Part shown: positions 5,232-31,668 of the stretch, in pieces
Position numbering within the stretch: the first letter of the stretch is position 1
Layout: each line of letters opens with the position of its first letter
Assembly (NCBI GenBank): GCA_947628655.1
Contig: CANRAS010000021.1
Coordinates: 1 to 36,184 of the forward strand
DNA from: an uncultured Clostridia bacterium
Lineage (GTDB): Bacteria; Bacillota; Clostridia; Oscillospirales; Ruminococcaceae
DNA length: 36,184 bases
Direction of reading: 5' to 3'
Position numbers and translations under genes: made by a program
The notes under the pieces: model-generated
The model's database searches: none
What the model was told of the DNA's origin: nothing
Seen by the model: only the letters and a program-made list of their open reading frames with translations

Positions 5232-5370
5232 AGGAAATGCTCCGGGTCATGGGAACAGACTTGCTGCGGCACACAAAGAAATCCGCTTAATGCTGCTCGG
5301 TTCCCCGCCTGACATGGTTCACAGCACTCTGTTGCACAGGGTCTGCCCCCATGACCCGAAACATTTCCAT
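5232..5370 (-). ncRNA. ffs: Signal recognition particle RNA
   Basis: On the minus strand this carries the universally conserved SRP domain IV: CCATGTCAGG, a GGGGAACC apical loop region, then AGCAGCATTAAG. The ends pair to close the molecule: AATGCTCCGGGTCATGGG near 5235-5252 (plus-strand reading) with CCCATGACCCGAAACATT near 5349-5366. No Alu-type domain is evident, so it looks like the small bacterial form, roughly 135 nt. A short CCTGT-TATT-ACAGG hairpin follows at 5221-5234. The exact ends are estimates. It lies directly upstream of dnaX, the usual Firmicutes position. Confidence 0.9.
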
Positions 5371-5651: not shown

Positions 5652-5680
5652 TTGACAATCGGCACGGATTGTGGTATAAT
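5652..5680 (+). promoter_or_regulatory. Consensus sigma-A promoter of the acylation operon
   Basis: TTGACA (5652-5657), a 17-nt spacer and TATAAT (5675-5680) match the vegetative consensus exactly. Transcription should begin near 5687, giving a leader of about 64 nt before the MBOAT start. It implies strong constitutive expression unless a repressor acts nearby. Confidence 0.88.
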
Positions 5681-5750: not shown

Positions 5751-7166
5751 TTGATATTTTCGAGCCTTATCTTCACATACGCGTTTTTGCCGCTGTGCCT
5801 TATCCTGTATGGGCTGGTAAAACCTCTTAAAGGCAAGAACTTCGTGCTGATAATTCTGTCGCTGTTTTTCTACGCTTGGGGAGAACCTCGGCGCGTGGGA
5901 CTTCTGCTTATATCTGCGGTCGTGAACTACTTCGTGGGCGTAGGCATAGGGAGCGTAAAAAGCGAGAAAGGCAAAAAGGGCGTTCTCGCGGCGGGTCTTG
6001 TGTTTAACATAGGAATGATAGCCGTTATTAAGTACAGCGGGTTTATTATGACGAACGTAAACGCGCTGTTTAAATCCTCTCTGCCCGTACCCGATATTGC
6101 TCCGCTCGCGGGAATTAGTTTCTACACGTTCCAAGTTATGAGTTACATTGTCGACTGCTATTGGGAGAAGATAGAACCGCAGAGGAATTTCTTCGATTTG
6201 CTGTTGTATATCTGCCTGTTCCCCCAGCTTATCGCGGGTCCTATCGTGCGCTATACGACGATTGCGGACGAGATTAACAACAGGCACACTACGCTGAAAG
6301 ACTATAGCGAGGGATTTACGAGGTTTGTCATAGGACTTTCAAAAAAGGTGATACTCGCCGACCAACTGCACCGCATAGTCGAGAACTTTTTAGGCGGGAA
6401 CGTTTCCGCGCTGACTATAGCGGGGTCGTGGTACGGCGTTATACTCTACTCGCTTTACGTCTATTTCGACTTTTCGGGATATTCCGATATGGCAATAGGC
6501 ATCGGACGGATTTTCGGATTTCACTTCAACGAGAACTTCGACCACCCGTATTTGTGCAAGGATATAACGGAATTCTGGCAGAGGTGGCATATTTCGCTCG
6601 GAACGTTCTTTAGGGACTATCTCCTGCCCGTGACGTTTTTCGGGCATAGAAACAAATATTTAAGCCTTGCTCTCGTGTGGCTCTGCACGGGAATATGGCA
6701 CGGCGCAAGCTGGAATTATGTGCTTTGGGGAGTATATTACGGCGTATTTATCGTTATCGAGGAACTTATCGGCAAAAAGCGTATGAAGAAAATCCCGCTT
6801 GTTATACGGCATATTTACAGTAAAATCGTTATAATCGTCGGTTTTGGGATATTCTATTTTGACGATACGCACGGCGGGCTTGCGAATTTGGGGATTTTCC
6901 TGCGCAACCTTACTCCCGCCAACCCGAACGGCTGGATAAGAACTACCGACGAGATTTCTATGTGCAACAATCTGTTTCTAATTATCGCGGCGGTAATCTG
7001 TATGTTGCCGCTGATAAAGTGGTTCAAAAAGCTGTCGGAGCGTTCTGTCGGAGCGCAGACGGCGGTTGCCGTGTCGGGAACGGCAGTTTGCGCGGTATTG
7101 CTTGTGACGAGCAGTATCCTGATGGTGGACGCGACAACGCAGGCGTTCCTCTACTGGCATTTCTAA
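5751..7166 (+). CDS. MBOAT-family membrane O-acyltransferase (AlgI/DltB-like)
   Basis: This 471-residue polytopic protein is of the AlgI/DltB type, which passes acyl groups from the cytoplasm to an extracellular acceptor system. The family core is visible: FWQRWHISLGTFFRDYLL (about 266-283), then TGIWHGASWNYVLWG with the invariant catalytic His at 317. Hydrophobic helices fill the rest. The start is TTG with GGGGTGAT eight nt upstream. It is the first gene of a tight operon with DHHW proteins, an FkbH-like loader and an ACP (14 nt to the next gene). Family members can use acetyl-CoA (AlgI) or a carrier-bound acyl (DltB). The co-transcribed ACP argues for a carrier-bound donor, which is inference. 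The substrate polymer is not shown by the sequence. Confidence 0.92.
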   Translation: MIFSSLIFTYAFLPLCLILYGLVKPLKGKNFVLIILSLFFYAWGEPRRVGLLLISAVVNYFVGVGIGSVKSEKGKKGVLAAGLVFNIGMIAVIKYSGFIMTNVNALFKSSLPVPDIAPLAGISFYTFQVMSYIVDCYWEKIEPQRNFFDLLLYICLFPQLIAGPIVRYTTIADEINNRHTTLKDYSEGFTRFVIGLSKKVILADQLHRIVENFLGGNVSALTIAGSWYGVILYSLYVYFDFSGYSDMAIGIGRIFGFHFNENFDHPYLCKDITEFWQRWHISLGTFFRDYLLPVTFFGHRNKYLSLALVWLCTGIWHGASWNYVLWGVYYGVFIVIEELIGKKRMKKIPLVIRHIYSKIVIIVGFGIFYFDDTHGGLANLGIFLRNLTPANPNGWIRTTDEISMCNNLFLIIAAVICMLPLIKWFKKLSERSVGAQTAVAVSGTAVCAVLLVTSSILMVDATTQAFLYWHF

Positions 7167-7180
7167 GGGGGTGACGGTTT

Positions 7181-7735
7181 ATGAACGAAAAGGAAAACAA
7201 AGCGCAGTCTGACGCGCAGGCAACTAAAAACAAGGACGAATGGCGGCGCGAAAAGCGCGGGAAAACGCTCGCGTTTTTAAACGTCATCGTGCTGATGATA
7301 GTCTTTGGGGGAATAGCCTTGTTTATGACGTTCGGCAAGCGACCGAACGTTTCCTACGAGGAAAACCGCGACCTTGAAAAACCGCCCGTGTTCACTTGGG
7401 CGGACTATTGGGACGGCAAGGTCACCGAGCAGTTCGCAAAATACTACAACGACACCGTTCCGATGCGGAGTACTTGGAAATTGTGGATTTCGGGATTTCG
7501 CGCAAGTCTTGGAATTAAATACAGGGGCGGTATTACGATCGTCGGCGATGTTCCGCCGATAGAAACACCTCAAAGTTCCGCGGGCAAACCCGAAAACTCG
7601 ATACCCGACGTCGTAATCCCGAACGACCCGAACAAAGTTCCCGAAGTGGTTATCCCGAACGCGGACGGCGAGAGCGACAGCACGTCCTCTCTGCCGTATG
7701 ACAAAGTACCGGAGGTGGTGATACCCGAAACGTAA
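7181..7735 (+). CDS. Membrane-anchored N-terminal half of a DHHW protein
   Basis: This 184-residue protein has a charged cytoplasmic N-terminus (1-27), one membrane anchor (about 28-50), and then an extracellular segment with the usual start of DHHW/AlgX-like proteins (SYEENRDLEKPP, then an aromatic and FP/VPMR-type motif at about 57-100). The catalytic half (DHHW and Ser motifs) is missing. The chain ends in a Pro-rich tail with three near-identical VVIP motifs at residues 144-147, 156-159 and 179-182. The ribosome binding site is GGGGGTGA. In canonical DHHW proteins both halves are one polypeptide. Here the catalytic half is supplied by the next three genes, so this looks like a membrane scaffold partner, not a pseudogene remnant. 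Confidence 0.75.
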   Translation: MNEKENKAQSDAQATKNKDEWRREKRGKTLAFLNVIVLMIVFGGIALFMTFGKRPNVSYEENRDLEKPPVFTWADYWDGKVTEQFAKYYNDTVPMRSTWKLWISGFRASLGIKYRGGITIVGDVPPIETPQSSAGKPENSIPDVVIPNDPNKVPEVVIPNADGESDSTSSLPYDKVPEVVIPET

Positions 7736-7783
7736 AAACGCAAGGACAGCTTTTCACAAAAACACAGTAAAAGAGGAATATCA

Positions 7784-8944
7784 ATGAAACAATTTAAACG
7801 CACGTTATTCGCATTAACAACGGCGGGCGCTGTTCTGCTTACCGCCTGCTCCGACAAGGAAAATTCAAAGCAGGAAACAAGCGCCGCGCAAGGCACGGTA
7901 AGTTCGCAAAGTACGATAAGTTCCGTGCAAAGTACCGTAACAACGCAAAGCACGGCAAGTTCAGCGCAGACGGAAAGCACCGCGCAGAATTCGACCGAAA
8001 GCACGGCGAGTTTGACGGACAGCACGGTAGAAATAATTGTGCCTGTCCCGCCCGACGAGAACGGCACAATAATCGGCGCGGAACTTGTCCTGGACAGCGG
8101 GCGCAGTATAATGCTGTCGAGTACAAATTCGATAAACGGCGCGAATTACGCGCAGACGGTGAACCGATACAAGGAAACGTTTCCCGATGTTCAGATGTAT
8201 TCGCTTGTCGTGCCGACCGCGATTTCGTTTTATCTGCCCGAACGGTTCAAGGAATACGACCCCGGCGAGAGAGGTCACATAGACGGGATAAACGCGCAGT
8301 TGAAAGGCGTAACGCCCGTGGACGTGTTCTCGGTTCTTGCACGGCACACGGACGAGCCTATATATTTCAACACCGATCACCATTGGACTCAGCTTGGCGC
8401 GTTTTACGGAGCGGAGGAGTTCACGAGGGTCGCGGGCGTTGATTTCAAGCCTATCTCCGAATTTGAGAAAAAGGACGGCGGGGACTTTATCGGTTCGGCT
8501 TACGGCAACAGCGGCGAGGACGAGCGAATAAAGGCGCTTGTCGAGCCGTTTACATACTACGTCCCGAAAAGCGATTTTGACGTGACGTTCTATGACCTCG
8601 ACGGCACGAACCCCATTCCGTTCTTCTACTTCGCAAACCCCGACGAACTCGACGCTTACGGGAAGTATTCGCTTTATATGTACGGCGACGGGCATATAGT
8701 TCACCTGAACACAAGCTGTAAAAACGGACGGCGGGTTTTAATTCTCAAAGAGGCGTTCGCTAATCCGTTTTGCGTAAATCTTGTAAATTCGTTCGAGGAC
8801 ATCTGGATAGCGGATATAAAATATATGGAAACTACCGCCGAAAAGCTGATTAACGACAACGGCATTACAGACCTGCTGTTTTGCCTTAGCACCTACAGCA
8901 CGTCGGGCGTAAATCAGGAGTTTCTCGCGGATGTAATACAATAA
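7784..8944 (+). CDS. DHHW-family lipoprotein 1, predicted inactive (catalytic Asp-Ser replaced)
   Basis: This 386-residue secreted lipoprotein has a signal peptide with lipobox LLTAC (lipidated Cys22), a Ser/Thr/Gln-rich linker (about 25-85) and an SGNH/AlgX-like catalytic region. The DHHW motif is intact at residues 198-201 in the context TDHHWTQLG. The second catalytic block, which reads KDSY in both downstream paralogs, is here KEAF (Glu323-Ala324), so the presumed nucleophile Ser is gone. The reading is clean, with no frameshift. It is the first of three tandem paralogs and likely arose by gene duplication. It could be a non-catalytic binding or regulatory subunit. The start has AGAGGAAT upstream; the gap to the previous gene is 48 nt. 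Confidence 0.85.
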   Translation: MKQFKRTLFALTTAGAVLLTACSDKENSKQETSAAQGTVSSQSTISSVQSTVTTQSTASSAQTESTAQNSTESTASLTDSTVEIIVPVPPDENGTIIGAELVLDSGRSIMLSSTNSINGANYAQTVNRYKETFPDVQMYSLVVPTAISFYLPERFKEYDPGERGHIDGINAQLKGVTPVDVFSVLARHTDEPIYFNTDHHWTQLGAFYGAEEFTRVAGVDFKPISEFEKKDGGDFIGSAYGNSGEDERIKALVEPFTYYVPKSDFDVTFYDLDGTNPIPFFYFANPDELDAYGKYSLYMYGDGHIVHLNTSCKNGRRVLILKEAFANPFCVNLVNSFEDIWIADIKYMETTAEKLINDNGITDLLFCLSTYSTSGVNQEFLADVIQ

Positions 8945-8985
8945 AATAATTAATAATAATTCAAGTATTAGGAGGATAAAAATAT

Positions 8986-10182
8986 ATGAATACCAAAAAG
9001 ATAATTTCGGCTGTCGTGTTTGCGGGAGTACTTCTGCTGACGGCGTGCAATGGCGAACAGCAAAACTCCGCGCCCGTCAGCGTTCCGCAGAGCAGTTCGG
9101 CGGTTTCGACAACGGAGAGCGCGCCGACTTCCACGGCAAGCACAACGACTTCTGCGGAAAGCACCGCGGTTTCGACAACGGAAAGTTCGTCGGATACGTC
9201 GGACACGTCGGACGCGAGCAACGTTATAATCAGCGCGGACAACACTTCAACCGACGCGACGCCGTTTACACCGCCGAACAACAATCAAGACGGCGAGATG
9301 TCGGGGAGCATACTCGTACTTCCCGGCGGGCGCGGGATAATGCTTTACGGCATAGGATACGAGCCGGGAAGAAATTACGCCGCGACGGTCAACAAATATA
9401 AAGAAGAACTCGGCAAGAACGTAAATGTTTATTCAATGGTCATTCCGACGCAGGTTTCGTTCTATCTGCCCGAAAAGTATTTTGACGAGGGCGTATCCGA
9501 CAGGGAACTTCCGCATATTGATGATATAAACGAGAATTTGTACGGGATTATCCCGATAGACGTATTCTCCGCGCTTAAAGGTCACGTCGAGGAGGATATT
9601 TTCTACCGTACAGACCACCATTGGACTCAGCTCGGCGCGTACTACGCGGCGCAGGCGTTCGCAAACACCGCGAAAGTGCCGTTCGACGATTTGTCGGCGT
9701 ATGACAAATACGAAAAGGACGGCTATCTCGGCACGCTTTACGGTTCGAGCGAACAAAATCCCGAAATCGGAAACAACCCCGAAACGTTCTTCTGGTATGT
9801 TCCGAAACGCGATTATACGGCTACATACTACGACCCCGATTTGTCGAACAGTTTTGACGGCGGATATTTCTTCAACCCCGACAACTTCGGCAGTACCGCG
9901 GAATGGAACTTGACTTATATGTGCGGCGACGGACATATTGTTCATGTGAATACGGGGCTGAATACGGGCAGAAAGCTGATGATACTTAAAGACAGCTACG
10001 CGGATTCGCTCACGTGCAATCTGTTCGGCTCGTTTGATGATATTTGGATAGTCGATATGCGCTACTGCGAAACAAGCGCGGTTCAGCTTGCAAAAGATAA
10101 CGGCATAACGGATCTGCTGTTCTGCTCGTGTACATTCAGCGCGACAGCGGATAATCAGTACAGACTTGGGGAAATAATGTAA
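8986..10182 (+). CDS. DHHW-family lipoprotein 2 (AlgX/DltD-like acyl transfer enzyme)
   Basis: This 398-residue lipoprotein has the lipobox LLTAC (lipidated Cys21), then a long Ser/Thr linker (about 25-90), then the catalytic region. The motif TDHHWTQLG places Asp210, His211, His212 and Trp213, and ILKDSYADS places Asp336 and Ser337. Together these give a plausible Ser-His-Asp machinery as in AlgX-type acetyltransferases. The ribosome binding site is AGGAGG. The gap to the previous gene is 41 nt. I infer that it receives an acyl group moved by the MBOAT protein and transfers it to an extracellular polymer. Hydrolysis (acyl removal) is an alternative activity for this fold. Confidence 0.88.
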   Translation: MNTKKIISAVVFAGVLLLTACNGEQQNSAPVSVPQSSSAVSTTESAPTSTASTTTSAESTAVSTTESSSDTSDTSDASNVIISADNTSTDATPFTPPNNNQDGEMSGSILVLPGGRGIMLYGIGYEPGRNYAATVNKYKEELGKNVNVYSMVIPTQVSFYLPEKYFDEGVSDRELPHIDDINENLYGIIPIDVFSALKGHVEEDIFYRTDHHWTQLGAYYAAQAFANTAKVPFDDLSAYDKYEKDGYLGTLYGSSEQNPEIGNNPETFFWYVPKRDYTATYYDPDLSNSFDGGYFFNPDNFGSTAEWNLTYMCGDGHIVHVNTGLNTGRKLMILKDSYADSLTCNLFGSFDDIWIVDMRYCETSAVQLAKDNGITDLLFCSCTFSATADNQYRLGEIM

Positions 10183-10211
10183 TAAGCATTTGTCTGAAAG
10201 GGGAAAATACT

Positions 10212-11369
10212 ATGAAAATCAGGAAAATCATCTCGGCATTATCGGCGGTGACAATCGCGCTTGCGCTCGGCGGGTGTCAGAACACCTCGCCTGCTCCGAG
10301 CGTTCCCGCCGTGGACGTCGGCTCGCAGAGTTCGCAGGAAGAAAGCACGGCAAGCACGGTAACGTCAACTTCAACCGAAACTTCGACTTCAACGACTTCA
10401 ACCGCCAGCACTTCAACCGAAACGAGCATTGAAACATCTTCAACCTCTGCGGAACAGCCCGTTGTTGACAAGACGGGTCAGCAGGGCGAAATATCGGGGT
10501 CGGTGCTTGTCGCGGCGGACGGGCGCGGTATGCCGATTTTCGGCGGTGGTACGGGGACAACCTACGCCACATCGGTGAACGCCGTCAAAGAAAAGGTCGG
10601 CGCGAATGTCAACGTCTTTTCAATGGTAATCCCGACGCAGGGTTCGTTCTATATGCCCGAAGGGTTTTCAATGGCAAGCGAGTGGGACTGCATAGCGAAC
10701 ATAAACAGCCAATTGAACGGCATTATCCCCGTGGACGCGTACACGGCGCTTTCCAGACACGTTGACGAGGAGATATACGCGCGAACAGACCACCATTGGA
10801 TGCAGCTCGGCGCATACTACGCGGCGGAGGAGTTCGTAAAAACCGCGAAGATAAGCGTACCTTTCGCACCGCTGTCCGACTATGAACGCCACGACATTGA
10901 GGGGTATCTCGGAACGCTCTACGCCTTCAGCGATGACAACGCGACAATGGGCGCGAACCCCGAAACTTTCACTTATTACGTTTCACCGAACGATTTTACG
11001 ACTTATTATATGAATCCCGAAGATGTCGATTTCGCTAGCGCTCCAATGTTTTTGCAAATGGATGTAAGTCAGTCTTATTGCATATTTATGGGCGGTGACA
11101 GAAAGGTCGTTCACGTTGACACGGACGTTACTAACAGCCGAAAACTTCTTATTATAAAGGACAGCTACGCAAACGCGCTTGTGCCGTGCCTTACGGGGTC
11201 TTTTGAGGATATTTGGGTGGTCGATATGCGCTATCTAGAGAAAATGCAGCACTTCCCGAACAGCATTTCGCAGATAGTAAAGGACTACGGAATAACCGAC
11301 GTGCTGTTTTGTATGGACACTTTCAGCGCGGTGGGCGAAAACGCAGTGCATTTGCCGGGAATAATCTGA
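10212..11369 (+). CDS. DHHW-family lipoprotein 3 (AlgX/DltD-like acyl transfer enzyme)
   Basis: This 385-residue lipoprotein has the lipobox LGGC (lipidated Cys22) and a linker made almost only of Ser, Thr and Glu (about 35-85). The catalytic region carries TDHHWMQLG (Asp193 to Trp196) and IIKDSYANA (Asp317, Ser318), so both catalytic blocks are intact. It follows paralog 2 by 29 nt with a GAAAGGGG ribosome binding site. The three paralogs share a common core but differ in linker length and in the loops between motifs, which suggests they act on different acceptor positions or form a mixed complex. That division of labour is inference. Confidence 0.88.
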   Translation: MKIRKIISALSAVTIALALGGCQNTSPAPSVPAVDVGSQSSQEESTASTVTSTSTETSTSTTSTASTSTETSIETSSTSAEQPVVDKTGQQGEISGSVLVAADGRGMPIFGGGTGTTYATSVNAVKEKVGANVNVFSMVIPTQGSFYMPEGFSMASEWDCIANINSQLNGIIPVDAYTALSRHVDEEIYARTDHHWMQLGAYYAAEEFVKTAKISVPFAPLSDYERHDIEGYLGTLYAFSDDNATMGANPETFTYYVSPNDFTTYYMNPEDVDFASAPMFLQMDVSQSYCIFMGGDRKVVHVDTDVTNSRKLLIIKDSYANALVPCLTGSFEDIWVVDMRYLEKMQHFPNSISQIVKDYGITDVLFCMDTFSAVGENAVHLPGII

Positions 11370-11384
11370 ATTTAGGAGAATAAT

Positions 11385-13175
11385 ATGCTGAAAGAATTGT
11401 GCTTTCCGTTTGACGGCGATTTGATTATGCAGTCCAAGAGAAAACTCCTGCGCCTGCTTAAAGAAAACGAAAGCGGGGTGAAACTCCGCGTCGCGGTGCT
11501 GGGCGGGTCAACGACTTCGGACATCATAAAAGTGCTTGAACTTTTCCTGCGCGACAGAGGAATTATCCCCGAATTTTACGAAAGCGAATACGCGCAGTAT
11601 TGGAGCGACGCGGTTTTCGGCACTCCCGAACTCGACGAATTTAAACCCGAACTCGTGTTTATTCACACGACTTCAAGAAATATCGAGGAAAAGCCGACGG
11701 TCGGCGAGGACGAAACGGCGGTTTCGGGAAAGTTAGAGCGCGAGTTTTCGCGGTACGAAAAAATGTGGAACGCGCTTTCCGAAAAGTTCGGGTGCGTTAT
11801 CATTCAAAACAACTTTGAAATGCCGTCCGAACGGCTTTTGGGAAACCGCGAAGTAGGCGTTCCCTACGGGCGCATTGACTTTATAACGCGCCTTAATGTA
11901 AAACTCTATGACTACGCGCAAAAGCACAATAATTTCTATATCCACGATATAAACTACCTGTCTGCTGATTACGGCTTGGAACGCTGGCACGAACTGAGGC
12001 ATTGGCATTTGTATAAGTACGCGCTGAGCGTTTCGGCTATCCCGCAGTTTGCCTACAGTCTGTCGAACATCATTTGTTCGGTTATGGGAAAGAACAAGAA
12101 AGTATTAGCGCTTGATTTGGATAATACGCTCTGGGGCGGAGTTATCGGCGACGACGGGCAGTCGGGCATTGAAATAGGAAGTGAAACCTCCGAGGGGCAG
12201 AGTTATCTTCGGCTTCAAAAATATATAAAAGCGCATAAGGAGATAGGCGTTCTGCTGACGGTCTGCTCGAAAAACGACCCCGAAAACGCATTAGAGGGTT
12301 TAAATCACCCCGACGGCGTTTTAAAGCCAAACGACTTCGCGCTGATAAAGGCAAACTGGAACGAAAAATCGCTGAACCTCGAAGAAACGGCGCAGGAACT
12401 GAACCTGCTCCCCGAAAGTTTCGTGTTCGCTGATGATAACCCCGCGGAGTGCGAAATAGTTAAGGCGCAGGTTCCCGAAATAGCCGTGCTGAACTTCAGC
12501 GACCCCGAAGAGTGTATAAGATATATCGACAAGTGCGGATATTTTGAGGTGACGAACCTTTCCGCGGACGATGCAAAGCGCAGCGAGATGTACGCGGCAA
12601 ACGCGCAGAGAGCGGCGGCAGAAAAGAAATTCGCAAGCTATGACGAGTTTCTCGCAAGTCTGGAAATGACCGCCGTTATCGGCGATTTTGACCCCGTGCA
12701 TATTCCGCGCATAACGCAGTTGACAAATAAGAGCAATCAGTTCAACTGCACGACAAAGCGATATACGGGCGCGGAAATGGAAACTGTCGCTAAGAGTACC
12801 GATTATATCAGGCTCTGCGGACGGCTTACAGACAAATTCGGCGACAACGGCATTGTATCGGTCGTTATAGGCGAAAAGCGAAACGCCGAACTTCACATTG
12901 ACCTTTGGCTGATGAGCTGTAGAGTTTTGAAACGCGGAATGGAATACGCGATGATAAACCGCCTTGTCGAGGAGGCGAAAAAGGCGGGTATATCCGAGAT
13001 ATACGGATATTATTACCCGACAAAGAAAAACGCTATGGTAAAGGAACTGTACGGCGATTTCGGCTTTGCGAAAATCTCCGAGGACGACGGCGGGAACACC
13101 GTCTGGAAGTTGGAAACAGCAGGCTATTCGCCGAAGAAAATATTTATTGACATAAAGGAGAATGAAAATGGATAG
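11385..13175 (+). CDS. FkbH-like HAD-IIIC phosphatase/acyl-loading protein
   Basis: This 596-residue protein has the three-part FkbH-family layout: an N-terminal SGNH-like domain (about 30-220, with AVLGGSTTSD), a HAD phosphatase domain with LDLDNTLWGGVIGDDG (Asp244 and Asp246), and a C-terminal GNAT-like domain (about 430-580, with TNQFNCTT, DKFGDNGIV and LMSCRVLKRGME). Characterised FkbH-type enzymes of polyketide and tetronate pathways dephosphorylate 1,3-bisphosphoglycerate and load D-glyceryl onto an acyl carrier protein. Here an ACP gene overlaps its 3' end and no ketosynthase is nearby, so the loaded acyl probably feeds the MBOAT/DHHW proteins of the same operon. The exact acyl group cannot be read from the sequence. 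The ribosome binding site is AGGAG. Confidence 0.9.
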   Translation: MLKELCFPFDGDLIMQSKRKLLRLLKENESGVKLRVAVLGGSTTSDIIKVLELFLRDRGIIPEFYESEYAQYWSDAVFGTPELDEFKPELVFIHTTSRNIEEKPTVGEDETAVSGKLEREFSRYEKMWNALSEKFGCVIIQNNFEMPSERLLGNREVGVPYGRIDFITRLNVKLYDYAQKHNNFYIHDINYLSADYGLERWHELRHWHLYKYALSVSAIPQFAYSLSNIICSVMGKNKKVLALDLDNTLWGGVIGDDGQSGIEIGSETSEGQSYLRLQKYIKAHKEIGVLLTVCSKNDPENALEGLNHPDGVLKPNDFALIKANWNEKSLNLEETAQELNLLPESFVFADDNPAECEIVKAQVPEIAVLNFSDPEECIRYIDKCGYFEVTNLSADDAKRSEMYAANAQRAAAEKKFASYDEFLASLEMTAVIGDFDPVHIPRITQLTNKSNQFNCTTKRYTGAEMETVAKSTDYIRLCGRLTDKFGDNGIVSVVIGEKRNAELHIDLWLMSCRVLKRGMEYAMINRLVEEAKKAGISEIYGYYYPTKKNAMVKELYGDFGFAKISEDDGGNTVWKLETAGYSPKKIFIDIKENENG

Positions 13176-13416
13176 GGAAAAGGTAACCGCACGGCTGACG
13201 GAAGTTTTCAGAGATGTGTTCGACGATGAAGATTTAGAAATAAACGACAGCACCACCGCCGACGATATTGAGGCGTGGGACAGTCTTGAACACATAAGCC
13301 TTGTTTCCGCAGTTGAAAAGGCGTTTAAAATGCGCTTTACGATGAAAGAAGTCAGCGGTATGAAGAACGTCGGCGAGATGATAAGCATTTTGTGCGAACG
13401 CGCAAAGAAATGTTGA
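13168..13416 (+). CDS. Acyl carrier protein
   Basis: This is an 82-residue acidic helical protein with the phosphopantetheine attachment motif DSLEH (Ser39). The start is chosen at 13168 because AGGAG sits 7 nt upstream. An ATG at 13162 would leave only one nt of spacing. It overlaps the end of the FkbH-like gene by 8 nt, a sign of translational coupling and matched amounts. Its place beside a loader and an MBOAT protein resembles DltC beside DltA and DltB. It would need a phosphopantetheinyl transferase encoded elsewhere. It is unlikely to be the fatty-acid ACP, because no fab genes are near. Confidence 0.93.
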   Translation: MDREKVTARLTEVFRDVFDDEDLEINDSTTADDIEAWDSLEHISLVSAVEKAFKMRFTMKEVSGMKNVGEMISILCERAKKC

Positions 13417-18813: not shown

Positions 18814-20418
18814 TTACAACTGCGGACCTGCGGGAACAAGCGCTTTGCCTGCGTCGTTGCCCTCGTACTTCGCGAAGTTCTTGATAAATCTCGCGGCGAG
18901 GTCTTTCGCTTTTTCTTCCCAATCGGACGCGTTAGCGTAAGTGTCGCGCGGGTCGAGTATCGCGGGGTCAACTCCGGGGAGTTCGGTAGGCACTTCAAGG
19001 TTGAAGTACGGAATTTTCTTCGTCGGGGCTTTCGCAATGTCGCCGTTTAAGATAGCGTCGATAATGCCGCGCGTATCCTTGATCGAAATACGCTTGCCTG
19101 TGCCGTTCCAGCCCGTGTTTACAAGGTACGCTTTCGCGCCGCTCTTCTGCATTTTCTTTACGAGTTCCTCGGCGTATTTTGTCGGGTGGAGTTCAAGGAA
19201 CGCCTGACCGAAGCACGCGGAGAATGTGGGCGTAGGCTCGGTAATTCCGCGCTCTGTACCCGCGAGTTTTGCGGTAAATCCCGAAAGGAAGTAATACTGC
19301 GTCTGTTCGGGAGTGAGTATCGAAACAGGAGGCAGAACTCCGAACGCGTCAGCCGAAAGGAAGATAACGTCCTTTGCCGCGGGTGCGGAAGAAATCGGGC
19401 GTACTATATTCTTGATGTGGTCGATAGGGTAAGAAACGCGGGTGTTTTCGGTTACGCTCTTGTCCTTAAAATCTATCTTGCCGTTTTCGTCGAGAGTTAC
19501 GTTTTCAAGCAGAGCGTTTCTCTTTATCGCGTTGTAGATGTCGGGTTCGCTTTCCTTGTCAAGGTCGATTACCTTTGCATAGCAGCCGCCCTCGAAGTTA
19601 AATACGCCGTTGTCGTCCCAGCCGTGTTCATCGTCGCCGATAAGCAAGCGCTTGGGGTCGGTTGAAAGCGTCGTCTTGCCTGTTCCCGAAAGACCGAAGA
19701 AGATAGCGGTGTTCTTGCCGTCCATATCGGTATTCGCGGAGCAGTGCATAGAGGCAATGCCCTTGAGCGGGAGGTAGTAGTTCATCATAGAGAACATACC
19801 CTTCTTCATTTCACCGCCGTACCATGTGTTGATAATGACCTGCTCGCGCGACGTGATATTGAACATAACAGCGGTTTCGGAATTAAGTCCGAGTTCCTTG
19901 TAGTTCTCGACTTTAGCCTTAGACGCGTTGTAAACAACGAAGTCGGGCGTAAAATCTTTCAGTTCGTCCTCGGTGGGTCTTATAAACATATTCTTAACAA
20001 AATGCGCCTGCCATGCCACTTCCATAATGAAACGGATAGCCATTCTTGTATCCTTGTTCGCGCCGCAGAAAGCGTCTACAACATACAGTTTTTTGTTGGA
20101 AAGTTCTTTTTGAGCGATAGCCTTGCAGGTTTCCCACGCCTCTTTTGTAGCGGGGTGGTTATCGTTCTTGTATTCATCGGAGGTCCACCAAACGGTATCC
20201 TTGGAATTATCGTCCATTACGATGAACTTATCCTTAGGCGAACGTCCCGTGTACACGCCTGTCATAACGTTCACCGCGCCGAGTTCGCTTTCCTGTCCCT
20301 TGTCAAAGCCTGTAAGCGAGGGGTCAAGCTCCGCCTTGTACAGTTCCTCGTACGAGGGATTGTAAACGATTTCGGCAGTACCCGTGATACCATACTTCGT
20401 CAAATCAATGTTAGCCAT
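18814..20418 (-). CDS. pckA: Phosphoenolpyruvate carboxykinase (ATP)
   Basis: This 534-residue cytoplasmic enzyme interconverts oxaloacetate and PEP with ATP/ADP. The ATP-type signature is clear: [10 protein letters not shown] near 57, the kinase-specific P-loop [11 protein letters not shown] near 240, and [21 protein letters not shown] directly after it, which carries the metal-binding Asp. [11 protein letters not shown]-like residues appear as [12 protein letters not shown] near 380. Length is typical. In anaerobes it often works in the carboxylating direction to make oxaloacetate and ATP. It is a single gene with its own consensus promoter, and the ribosome binding site is AGAGGTAA, about 7 nt before ATG. 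Confidence 0.97.
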
Positions 20419-30327: not shown

Positions 30328-31668
30328 ATGAGCATAAAACTTGATGACAAATACTTAAAGGACTTTGTCCGCCCGCACGAGCTTGCGCAGTACGCGCCTG
30401 CCGTTAAGACGGCGTTCGATACGCTGATGAACAAAACGGGAGCGGGCAATGATTTTTTGGGGTGGATAGATCTTCCCGTCGATTATGATAAAGACGAGTT
30501 CGAGAGAATTAAAAAAGCCGCCGCGAAGATAAAGAGCGACAGCAAGGTGCTTATCGTTATCGGCATCGGCGGTTCGTATCTCGGCGCGAGGGCGGTTATC
30601 GAGGCGCTGAAATCGACGCTTTACAACTCGCTTGCAAAGGATACCCCCGAAATATACTTCTGCGGCAACAGCATTTCTCCTACTTATTTAAACGAGATAA
30701 TCTCGCTTGTCAAGGACAGGGATTTTTCCGTCAACATAATCTCCAAATCGGGTACGACTACAGAGCCTGCTTTGGCGTTCAGAGTGTTCAGAGATTTGCT
30801 TGTGGAACGTTACGGCGAGGAGGGCGCGAAAAGCCGCATTTACGCGACGACTGACAAGGCAAAGGGTACGCTCAAAGAGTTATCGGATAAAATGGGCTAT
30901 GAAACGTTTGTCGTACCCGACGACGTAGGCGGCCGCTATTCCGTGCTTACCGCCGTGGGACTTCTGCCTATCGCGTGCGCGGGGTGCGATATAGACGCTC
31001 TTATGAAAGGCGCGGCGGACGCCCGCGAGGAATACAGGACGTTCGACATTGAAAAGAATACGGCTTGCAAATACGCAGCTTTGAGAAATATCCTGCGCCA
31101 AAAAGGCAAATCCGTTGAAATGCTGATAAGCTATGAAAACAGCTTTGTTATGATGGCGGAGTGGTTCAAGCAGTTGTTCGGCGAAAGCGAGGGCAAGGAC
31201 GGCAAGGGACTGTTCCCGTCGGGCGCGTCGTTCTCGACAGACCTGCACTCGCTCGGACAGTTTATTCAGGACGGCTCACGGATTATGTTTGAAACGGTCG
31301 TGCAGTTTGAAAAACCGCAGAAAGACTTGTTCATAAAGGACGACCCCGAAAACATCGACGGGCTGAATTTCCTTTCAAATCAGAATATGAGCATAGTCAA
31401 CCGCAAGGCGTTCGAGGGAACGGTTATCGCGCATACCGAGGGCGGCGTGCCGAATATCGTGCTGGAAGTTCCCGCTTTGGACGAACACGAACTCGGCGGT
31501 ATGATATACTTCTTTGAACTTGCGTGCGGAGTAAGCGGTTATCTGCTCGGCGTTAATCCGTTCGACCAGCCGGGCGTTGAAAGCTACAAGAAGAATATGT
31601 TCGCGCTTTTGGGAAAGCCGGGTTACGAGGACAGACGGGCGGATCTGGAGGCTGGAATTAACAAATAA
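30328..31668 (+). CDS. pgi: Glucose-6-phosphate isomerase
   Basis: This 446-residue cytoplasmic glycolytic enzyme converts glucose-6-phosphate and fructose-6-phosphate. The sugar-isomerase signatures are present: [11 protein letters not shown] (about 79-89), the phosphate-binding [14 protein letters not shown] (about 138-151) and the C-terminal SHEMGG-like region seen here as [13 protein letters not shown]. The length fits the short Firmicutes form. GGAAAGGAGC lies before the ATG. It has its own promoter and appears monocistronic or followed by the small P-loop gene 109 nt downstream. Confidence 0.97.

What the first reader, a model, noticed from the sequence alone, without database searches (positions are those of the whole stretch)
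5751..13416. Dlt-like surface acylation operon that uses an FkbH loader and its own ACP: candidate polymer glycerylation system
One operon encodes an MBOAT acyltransferase, DHHW/AlgX-like extracellular proteins, an FkbH-like protein and an ACP overlapping it by 8 nt. This mirrors DltA (loader), DltC (carrier), DltB (MBOAT) and DltD (outer enzyme), but the loader is replaced by a family known to put glyceryl from 1,3-bisphosphoglycerate onto ACPs. No ketosynthase or other polyketide gene is present, so the acyl-ACP has no obvious use except the MBOAT step. I infer decoration of a cell-wall or capsular polymer with glyceryl (or a related hydroxyacyl) groups, linking glycolytic flux to the surface.
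Basis: partly seen in the sequence, partly recalled or inferred. Interest (0 to 1): 0.88.

Follow-up and report, generated by a model that had tools for sequence, protein, structure and literature searches.

The report
Glycolysis-fed bacterial surface acylation operon
A gut bacterium carries, like many of its relatives, a set of genes that appears to take a three-carbon sugar-breakdown product, load it on a small carrier protein and pass it through the membrane onto the cell's outer coat, which would be a third way of decorating bacterial surfaces.

Summary
In detail: 5751-13416 (+) encodes an MBOAT, a membrane stub, three DHHW lipoproteins (the first probably dead), a full-length FkbH protein and an ACP overlapping it by 8 nt, behind a 12/12 sigma-70 promoter. 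No ketosynthase was found in the operon or the other window ORFs scanned. Two residue-level tests agree. FkbH-linked MBOATs lack a PLGG motif (3 of 74 have it), as do true DltBs (0 of 9), whereas most other MBOATs examined have it (34 of 38). They keep the C-terminal FxYxxF acyl-shuttle motif of PatA (72 of 74). So this is a hybrid: carrier-protein donor as in Dlt, fused shuttle as in PatAB, and a probable glyceryl loader. The FkbH resembles tetronate-type glyceryl-ACP synthases. Some relatives add epimerase-, dehydratase-, reductase- or transketolase-like genes, so the acyl group probably varies. Glyceryl identity and the target polymer are inferred, not shown.

The parts
5652..5680 (+). sigma-70 promoter match, TTGACA-17-TATAAT
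   Evidence: 12 of 12 consensus matches with TG before the second hexamer, (consensus match only)
5751..7166 (+). MBOAT acyltransferase, 471 aa; His280 and His317 align with DltB 289 and 336; C-terminal FLYWHF (Tyr468) shuttle motif; no PLGG motif
   Evidence: PF03062 88.9 bits; the two PDB sequences matched are DltB; invariant columns H280, H317, F466, Y468 in A3 and A4; motifs
7181..7735 (+). single-TM stub, the N-terminal part of a split DHHW protein
   Evidence: 45% identity over 113 aa to the N-terminus of an intact 466-aa DHHW relative; stubs of 118-220 aa in L041 (same gene as L145), L042, L143, L147 and L215
7784..8944 (+). DHHW lipoprotein copy 1, probable pseudoenzyme (KEAF...DIKY in place of KDSY...DMRY)
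   Evidence: PF14286 118.4 bits; nucleophile Ser and oxyanion Arg replaced here and in relative L143
8986..10182 (+). DHHW lipoprotein copy 2, predicted active outer acyltransferase
   Evidence: PF14286 112.7 bits; PDB 4nzk E 2e-69 and B. cereus PatB1 E 3e-8; KDSY/DMRY/DHHW present
10212..11369 (+). DHHW lipoprotein copy 3, predicted active outer acyltransferase
   Evidence: PF14286 122.1 bits; 44% identical to copy 2; KDSY/DMRY/DHHW present
11385..13175 (+). full-length FkbH protein (FkbH_N, HAD-IIIC and C-terminal part), predicted glyceryl-ACP synthase
   Evidence: TIGR01686 284 bits; D244, D246, S295, K328, D350, D351 and Cys512 invariant in A1 and A2; 24 and 25 of 26 chosen residues identical to two tetronate-cluster FkbHs
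13168..13416 (+). acyl carrier protein with a WDSLxH phosphopantetheine site; the longest frame starts at 13162
   Evidence: PF00550; best PDB relative 2lml, E 6e-16; start choice; in G042 the ACP sits with MBOAT-DHHW and not beside FkbH (L233)

Best explanation
This is a carrier-protein-dependent MBOAT-SGNH system that O-acylates an extracellular polymer. FkbH takes D-glyceryl from the glycolytic intermediate 1,3-bisphosphoglycerate, removes the phosphate and loads glyceryl on the phosphopantetheine of the dedicated ACP. The ACP docks on the cytoplasmic face of the MBOAT. The MBOAT (His317) passes the acyl group to Tyr468 in its own C-terminal FLYWHF peptide on the outer face. That peptide hands it to the catalytic Ser of the DHHW lipoproteins (copies 2 and 3), which esterify a surface polymer. 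Copy 1 is a pseudoenzyme, perhaps a scaffold or polymer binder, and the stub supplies the membrane anchor that single-chain relatives carry at their N-terminus. Shown by sequence: gene content, motif state, co-occurrence and the hybrid architecture. Inferred: glyceryl as the group, the direct ACP-to-MBOAT transfer, the roles of copy 1 and the stub, and the polymer.
For: Conserved cluster: 60 order stretches, 80 named loci; after removal of 5 duplicate loci, the gene after FkbH is the ACP in 107 of 125, overlapping it in 49, and 77 of 125 have ACP and MBOAT in one same-strand chain. Co-occurrence: the 30 genomes with the best hits to the A4 MBOAT profile are all FkbH+ (57 of 295 are), 12 of them without the genes side by side. 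Split operon in G042: MBOAT-DHHW-ACP on one contig, FkbH without ACP on another. Donor-side motif PLGG: 3 of 74 distinct FkbH-operon MBOATs, 0 of 8 in-trans partners, 0 of 9 true DltBs, against 34 of 38 distinct unlinked MBOATs; it sits where DltB's DltC-binding helix HC lies. Shuttle motif FxYxxF in 72 of 74; mechanism in PMC12148441. FkbH clade that holds the MBOAT-linked proteins of Clostridia and Alphaproteobacteria, support 1.0, then the tetronate type, 0.986. Acyl-modifying enzymes inserted in some relatives' operons.
Against: No product was seen. Over whole length the MBOAT is no more DltB-like than unlinked MBOATs (161 bits against 152-174 bits for four). Three operon MBOATs carry PxGG (L078 and L154 as PIGG, and L201), and two MBOATs of FkbH-negative genomes lack it (L141, L142). 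22 of 46 well-covered named loci have no DHHW match on the FkbH strand; in some the outer protein is of another family (cluster C0, or a GDSL-type lipoprotein), in others none was identified. 7 of those 46 have no MBOAT on that strand (L167, L172, L173, L175, L183, L205, L221). Short FkbHs of another branch also lie a few kb from an MBOAT in L081, L084, L085 and L088. No polysaccharide cluster was recognised in the window. The A4 profile was built from FkbH-linked rows, the p-values ignore phylogeny, and for 3 of the 12 separated cases (G067, G225, G284) FkbH lies on a short contig or at a contig end, so neighbourhood is not excluded.
Confidence: 0.66

Rival explanations
1. Same machine, different acyl group: the FkbH product is converted before transfer, or FkbH loads something else, so the polymer receives lactyl, glycolyl, epimerised glyceryl or another small 2-hydroxyacyl.
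For: In relatives the operon chain holds a Glyoxalase_4/VOC gene (6 of 125 distinct loci, plus S. meliloti and Rhodobacteraceae plasmids), MaoC (13 of 125), SDR (9 of 125) or a close transketolase pair (5 of 125).
Against: None of these genes is in the window operon, so plain glyceryl is the simplest reading here; enzymes encoded elsewhere in the genome were not searched for and are not excluded.
Confidence: 0.2
2. The MBOAT and DHHW proteins are an ordinary acetyl-CoA-dependent O-acetyltransferase pair (PatA1/PatB1-like), and FkbH-ACP only shares the operon while feeding another pathway.
For: The DHHW proteins match PatB1 and the MBOAT keeps the FxYxxF motif of CoA-type MBOATs; some FkbH-ACP pairs stand without an MBOAT in the stretch seen.
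Against: Genome-wide co-occurrence even when not side by side; the ACP sitting with MBOAT-DHHW when FkbH is elsewhere; PLGG lost in the linked MBOATs and in DltB but present in most unlinked ones; the same genome already has a PLGG-type MBOAT-DHHW pair on C13 (L001/L223).
Confidence: 0.08
3. Part of a small secondary-metabolite pathway (tetronate or methoxymalonyl type), the MBOAT acylating a secreted small molecule.
For: The FkbH papers found are of such clusters (PMC7489565), and the aeruginosin review describes clusters with both an FkbH domain and an MBOAT (PMC10143770).
Against: No ketosynthase, FabH-like, acyl-CoA dehydrogenase or NRPS family in the operon or among the other window ORFs scanned; the methoxymalonyl-type FkbHs taken for comparison are short and lie on another branch; the outer lipoproteins are of a polymer-acylating family.
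Confidence: 0.06

Closest known systems
Dlt pathway (DltA-DltC-DltB-DltX-DltD), D-alanylation of teichoic acids
   Same: dedicated loader, dedicated carrier protein, MBOAT without a PLGG motif, outer SGNH-type enzyme (mechanism from PMC12148441 passages)
   Different: loader is FkbH, not an amino-acid ligase; no DltX found, the shuttle peptide is fused to the MBOAT; outer enzymes are DHHW, not DltD; MBOAT scores 161 against the DltB cut-off of 375; no DltA over cut-off in the genome
PatA/PatB peptidoglycan O-acetylation and B. cereus PatA1/PatB1
   Same: MBOAT with C-terminal FxYxxF plus an outer SGNH-type enzyme; PatB1 is itself a DHHW protein with DHHW and DxRY motifs
   Different: PatA uses acetyl-CoA and the 2025 paper states that MBOAT/SGNH pathways other than Dlt lack a carrier protein; here FkbH and an ACP are conserved partners and the PLGG motif is absent
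FkbH/glyceryl-ACP synthases of tetronate clusters (glycerate-utilisation operon)
   Same: full-length FkbH next to a small ACP; 24 and 25 of 26 chosen residues identical in the two compared
   Different: no FabH-like enzyme and no polyketide synthase found; the acyl-ACP meets an MBOAT
CcsH/CcsI (MBOAT/DHHW) of clostridial cellulose
   Same: clostridial MBOAT/DHHW pair (PMC7710045 passages)
   Different: sits with a cellulose synthase and is proposed to acetylate; no FkbH or ACP is mentioned in the passages seen

Membership tests
Dlt D-alanylation system | DltA D-alanine ligase in the operon or genome | tested here: not met
   none in the operon; best genome hit 90.9 bits against a cut-off of 559.85; the assembly is 95.6% complete
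Dlt D-alanylation system | DltB equivalog | tested here: not met
   TIGR04091 161.3 bits against 375; no match at 1e-90 in the genome
Dlt D-alanylation system | DltC carrier protein | tested here: not met
   ACP present, but the NCBIfam scan lists only general acyl carrier protein models
Dlt D-alanylation system | carrier-protein-dependent MBOAT | tested here: inconclusive
   motif state and co-occurrence point to it; no biochemistry
MBOAT-SGNH envelope acylation (PatAB kind) | MBOAT with C-terminal FxYxxF shuttle motif | tested here: met
   FLYWHF at the C-terminus; 72 of 74 distinct operon MBOATs
MBOAT-SGNH envelope acylation (PatAB kind) | outer SGNH-type partner with Ser, DxRY and DHHW motifs (DHHW kind) | tested here: met
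   copies 2 and 3; copy 1 fails
MBOAT-SGNH envelope acylation (PatAB kind) | acyl-CoA donor, no carrier protein | tested here: not met
   carrier protein and loader conserved with the MBOAT; direct use of CoA could not be tested
FkbH glyceryl-ACP synthase | FkbH domain with intact HAD residues and a neighbouring ACP | tested here: met
   TIGR01686 284 bits; residues; ACP is the next gene in 107 of 125 distinct loci
FkbH glyceryl-ACP synthase | use of 1,3-bisphosphoglycerate | not testable with these tools
   needs an enzyme assay
Methoxymalonyl-ACP pathway | two dehydrogenases and an O-methyltransferase with FkbH and ACP | tested here: not met
   absent from the operon; the FkbHs of that kind compared are on a separate branch
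Tetronate glycerate-utilisation operon | FabH-like enzyme and polyketide synthase | tested here: not met
   not found in the operon or the other window ORFs scanned

The most novel reading that the evidence does not exclude
A third, widespread class of bacterial surface acylation whose acyl groups are built on a dedicated carrier protein from central metabolites. The minimal form attaches glyceryl taken from 1,3-bisphosphoglycerate; variants edit the carrier-bound group (epimerase-like, dehydratase plus reductase, transketolase pair) to make a small alphabet of hydroxyacyl esters such as L-glyceryl, lactyl or glycolyl. Its presence in Oscillospiraceae, Lachnospiraceae and on Sinorhizobium meliloti pSymB would make it a general code for gut and symbiont surfaces.
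Probability: 0.4. Interest if true: 0.9.

Novelty: new variant of a known kind. Interest (0 to 1): 0.8.

Why it matters
A 2025 account of MBOAT-SGNH acylation sets Dlt (carrier protein, separate shuttle DltX) against the others (acyl-CoA, no carrier, fused shuttle; PMC12148441 passages). This operon is a hybrid: carrier protein, fused shuttle, probable glyceryl loader. If right, many gut bacteria and a model symbiont put a glycolytic C3 unit on their surface, an ester that routine wall analysis might miss, and the surface state could depend on carbon flux. It also suggests a sequence signature (absence of PLGG behind the RWH box) to predict whether a bacterial MBOAT uses CoA or a carrier protein, which is directly testable.

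Tried and rejected
Whole-length likeness to DltB as evidence: rejected, linked and unlinked MBOATs score alike. Secondary-wall-polymer pyruvylation (CsaB, PF04230) as a pointer to the polymer: no match in the genome. One Glyphos_transf match (TagF-like by recollection, 51.5 bits) leaves a teichoic-type polymer possible, not shown. A DUF308 membrane protein beside DHHW in one genus looked like an MBOAT replacement; its Pfam match is not MBOAT, and those genomes keep an MBOAT of the right clade elsewhere. A transketolase in L167, L177 and L221 was not counted as part of the system because six other genes lie between. Polyketide context: none found in the ORFs scanned. Structure models of MBOAT and FkbH could not be had. 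The paper on the closest ACP of known structure (recalled: GmACP3 of Geobacter, 2lml) is not held. Whether glyceryl esters of gellan (recalled) come from such an operon was not tested.
Full report
What is there. Behind a 12/12 sigma-70 promoter match at 5652-5680 lie, on one strand, an MBOAT (5751-7166), a 184-aa single-TM protein (7181-7735), three DHHW proteins (7784-8944, 8986-10182, 10212-11369), an FkbH protein (11385-13175) and an ACP (ATG 13162 or, better placed behind AAGGAG, 13168; stop at 13416). The operon is divergent from dnaX and ybaB, with the small SRP RNA between (5250-5348 minus). Pfam scans of the operon and of the other main window ORFs show no ketosynthase. The window is a whole 36,184-base contig of a 2.09-Mb assembly in 34 contigs.

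The 184-aa protein is the N-terminal anchor part of a DHHW protein that is one chain in many relatives (stubs also in L041, L042, L143, L147 and L215). The three DHHW proteins have lipobox-like N-termini (regex) and are paralogues, 43-44% identical for the two pairs compared. Using the residues reported for B. cereus PatB1 (Ser nucleophile, DxRY oxyanion Arg, DHHW; passages of PMC9487903), copies 2 and 3 are intact, while copy 1 has KEAF and DIKY where the others have KDSY and DMRY. The relative L143 keeps the same altered copy, which suggests that it is maintained.

Is the cluster real beyond this genome? In 295 genomes of the order, 64 have an FkbH match and 57 pass the cut-off. I fetched 60 stretches around the matches and found the set recurring in two orders, MBOAT-DHHW-FkbH-ACP and FkbH-ACP-MBOAT-outer protein. 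77 of the 80 have an ACP on the same strand and 63 an MBOAT; of the 46 with at least 7 kb upstream and 6 kb downstream, 45, 39 and 24 have ACP, MBOAT and DHHW. L143 and L144 have the window's own kind of arrangement. Both sets together give 130 loci with an FkbH of 480 aa or more; five are the same locus seen twice, leaving 125. Of these, the gene after FkbH is the ACP in 107 (overlapping in 49), and 77 have both ACP and MBOAT in one same-strand chain; many contigs end inside the cluster. The 80 are the nearest by FkbH similarity, not a random sample.

I built a profile from 22 FkbH-linked MBOATs (A4) and searched the same 295 genomes. Hits fall from 643 bits (G042) to 604 bits (G170). All 30 genomes above the gap are among the 57 FkbH+ genomes (hypergeometric 1.4e-25; their 15 genera are all among the 37 FkbH+ genera of 148, 7e-11). 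These p-values ignore descent, and the profile comes from linked rows, so linked copies score high partly by construction. The telling part is the 12 genomes in which MBOAT and FkbH are not side by side: G108, a single contig, has them at 0.83 and 2.54 Mb. In three of the 12 (G067, G225, G284) FkbH lies on a short contig or at a contig end, so neighbourhood is not excluded there. Within the window's family, 14 of 15 genomes with FkbH over cut-off have this MBOAT (the exception is G191) and 0 of the 11 others do. In G042 the ACP sits with MBOAT-DHHW while FkbH stands without ACP on another contig (L233 and L046), so the ACP goes with the MBOAT side as well as with FkbH. The other 27 FkbH+ genomes do not reach 643 bits; some have MBOATs of other FkbH-linked branches, some have short FkbHs of another branch, four of these with an MBOAT a few kb away (L081, L084, L085, L088).

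Donor side of the MBOAT. DltC binds DltB at helix HC (DltB 302-317), just behind the RWH box (passages of PMC11035591). At that place (alignment) most unlinked MBOATs shown carry PLGG(N/S)R or close variants, and FkbH-linked ones do not. Counted by the pattern P[LMIVF]GG anywhere in the protein: 3 of 77 MBOATs in FkbH operon chains have it (3 of 74 distinct), 0 of 8 in-trans partners, and not the G042 copy; 16 of 19 unlinked copies in FkbH+ genomes and 18 of 20 in the second set (FkbH-negative genomes, plus the other copy of G067) have it, that is 34 of 38 distinct. The unlinked FkbH+ exceptions are L118 and L121, which are one gene of G178, and L120 of G191: both genomes have an FkbH-ACP without an MBOAT beside it, so these may be the missing partners. 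The other two exceptions, L141 and L142, are in FkbH-negative genomes and unexplained. 26 further MBOATs lay in the same stretches but outside the chain; 7 have the motif, six of them on the opposite strand. As an independent control, 9 true DltBs (432-502 bits, cut-off 375) from 245 genomes of the class have it in 0 of 9 cases. So the motif appears to track whether the donor is a carrier protein. Against over-reading: whole-length DltB scores do not separate six linked (113-174 bits) from four unlinked (152-174 bits) MBOATs.

Outer side. The MBOAT ends in FLYWHF. PMC12148441 (abstract, part of the introduction and passages seen) shows that PatA acylates the Tyr of its C-terminal FxYxxF, reports that DltX carries the same motif for DltB, and states that other MBOAT/SGNH pathways lack a carrier protein. 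Here 75 of 77 operon MBOATs of 400 aa or more (72 of 74 distinct) have FxYxxF; so do 43 of 47 unlinked or in-trans ones, so this motif is general and does not tell the classes apart, while the nine DltBs lack it. The system is therefore a hybrid of the two known designs.

What does FkbH make? D244, D246, S295, K328, D350, D351, the NQFN box and Cys512 are invariant in 32 aligned sequences (A2); that the Asp, Ser and Lys residues are the HAD motifs is recalled. Among plasmid records I took full-length FkbHs beside FabH-like genes, with a polyketide synthase or ketosynthase near (Methylosinus, Pseudalkalibacillus), which I call tetronate type from gene content as in PMC7489565 (passages), and two short ones beside acyl-CoA dehydrogenases. 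The window's FkbH matches the first two at 24 and 25 of 26 chosen positions, and S. albidoflavus' short one at 20 of 26. One clade (support 1.0) holds the MBOAT-linked long FkbHs of Clostridia and Alphaproteobacteria, together with a few long ones without an MBOAT in reach (for example L039, L083, L205 and Niveispirillum); adding the tetronate type and an Erwinia protein gives 0.986. The product assigned to the tetronate type is glyceryl-ACP from 1,3-BPG (PMC7489565); for the window's protein that is inference.

Variation. In relatives the same operon chain takes up a Glyoxalase_4/VOC gene (6 of 125; methylmalonyl-CoA-epimerase-like is recalled), MaoC (13), SDR (9) or a close split transketolase (5). 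S. meliloti pSymB has VOC-MBOAT-protein-ACP-FkbH, the third being annotated as a TonB-dependent receptor but without a Pfam match, and a Rhodobacteraceae plasmid ACP-FkbH-MBOAT-protein-VOC near sulfation genes. Both VOCs match the same Pfam family as a clostridial one, and the three alphaproteobacterial MBOATs examined lack PLGG and end in FxYxxF. Such enzymes can act on thioesters, so I suggest that the carrier-bound group is edited: epimerised glyceryl, or glyceryl to pyruvyl to lactyl by dehydration and reduction, is a guess. The window operon has none of them, hence plain glyceryl. In six Lachnospiraceae loci a phosphofructokinase gene follows FkbH-ACP (in L221 FkbH alone) (identity checked in two), a hint of a tie to glycolysis, though these six have no MBOAT in the stretch seen.

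Target. Unknown. The genome lacks DltA over cut-off and CsaB, has one Glyphos_transf match, three ACP matches and a second, PLGG-type MBOAT-DHHW pair on C13. The DHHW enzyme studied so far acts on secondary wall polymer, and another is proposed for cellulose.

Known or new? Searches of the open library for FkbH with MBOAT and acyl carrier protein (one paper, on aeruginosins), FkbH with glyceryl and polysaccharide (none), HAD-IIIC with MBOAT (none), DHHW with MBOAT (two), and broader sets, of which I saw the listings, showed no description of this system; most subscription papers are not in that library. I judge it a new variant of MBOAT-SGNH surface acylation. It is not a Dlt system by the features tested, though it probably works like one on the donor side.

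Noticed in passing
window 5250-5348 (-): Bacterial small SRP RNA (RF00169, 69.6 bits) between dnaX and the operon's promoter.
   Followed up: yes
window 7784-8944 and L143 6251-7510: A DHHW probable pseudoenzyme (nucleophile Ser and oxyanion Arg both replaced), kept in tandem with intact paralogues in both.
   Followed up: partly
L167, L173, L177, L189, L192, L221: In six Lachnospiraceae the FkbH(-ACP) genes sit directly before phosphofructokinase- and dnaX-like genes; the window's operon also neighbours dnaX and ybaB.
   Followed up: partly
L234, L235 (G136, G280): A second, 1075-aa protein with an FkbH domain elsewhere in two genomes of the family.
   Followed up: no
L047, L063, L068, L069, L072: A 442-446-aa protein, with DUF308 matches in the three scanned, lies just upstream of the DHHW genes in one genus.
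   Followed up: partly
L211 7553-9628, L182 14341-16278: A 60Kd inner-membrane-protein (YidC-type) homologue lies beside the FkbH locus in L211; L182 has a similar-looking gene that was not scanned.
   Followed up: no
L237 (S. meliloti 1021 pSymB 631220-632886): The FkbH match falls in two pieces in the 1021 record but in one in strain 2011; the cause was not examined.
   Followed up: no
L238 (Niveispirillum plasmid): FkbH-ACP beside a WcbI-type putative acetyltransferase and an SDR, no MBOAT annotated there, perhaps a cytoplasmic variant of the same idea.
   Followed up: no
L205 (Candidatus Endomicrobiellum siamense MAG): FkbH-MaoC-SDR-ACP without an MBOAT in the stretch, in a lineage far from the Clostridia.
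   Followed up: no
window 18814-20418 and 30328-31668: PEP carboxykinase and phosphoglucose isomerase genes on the same contig; no evidence of a link.
   Followed up: no
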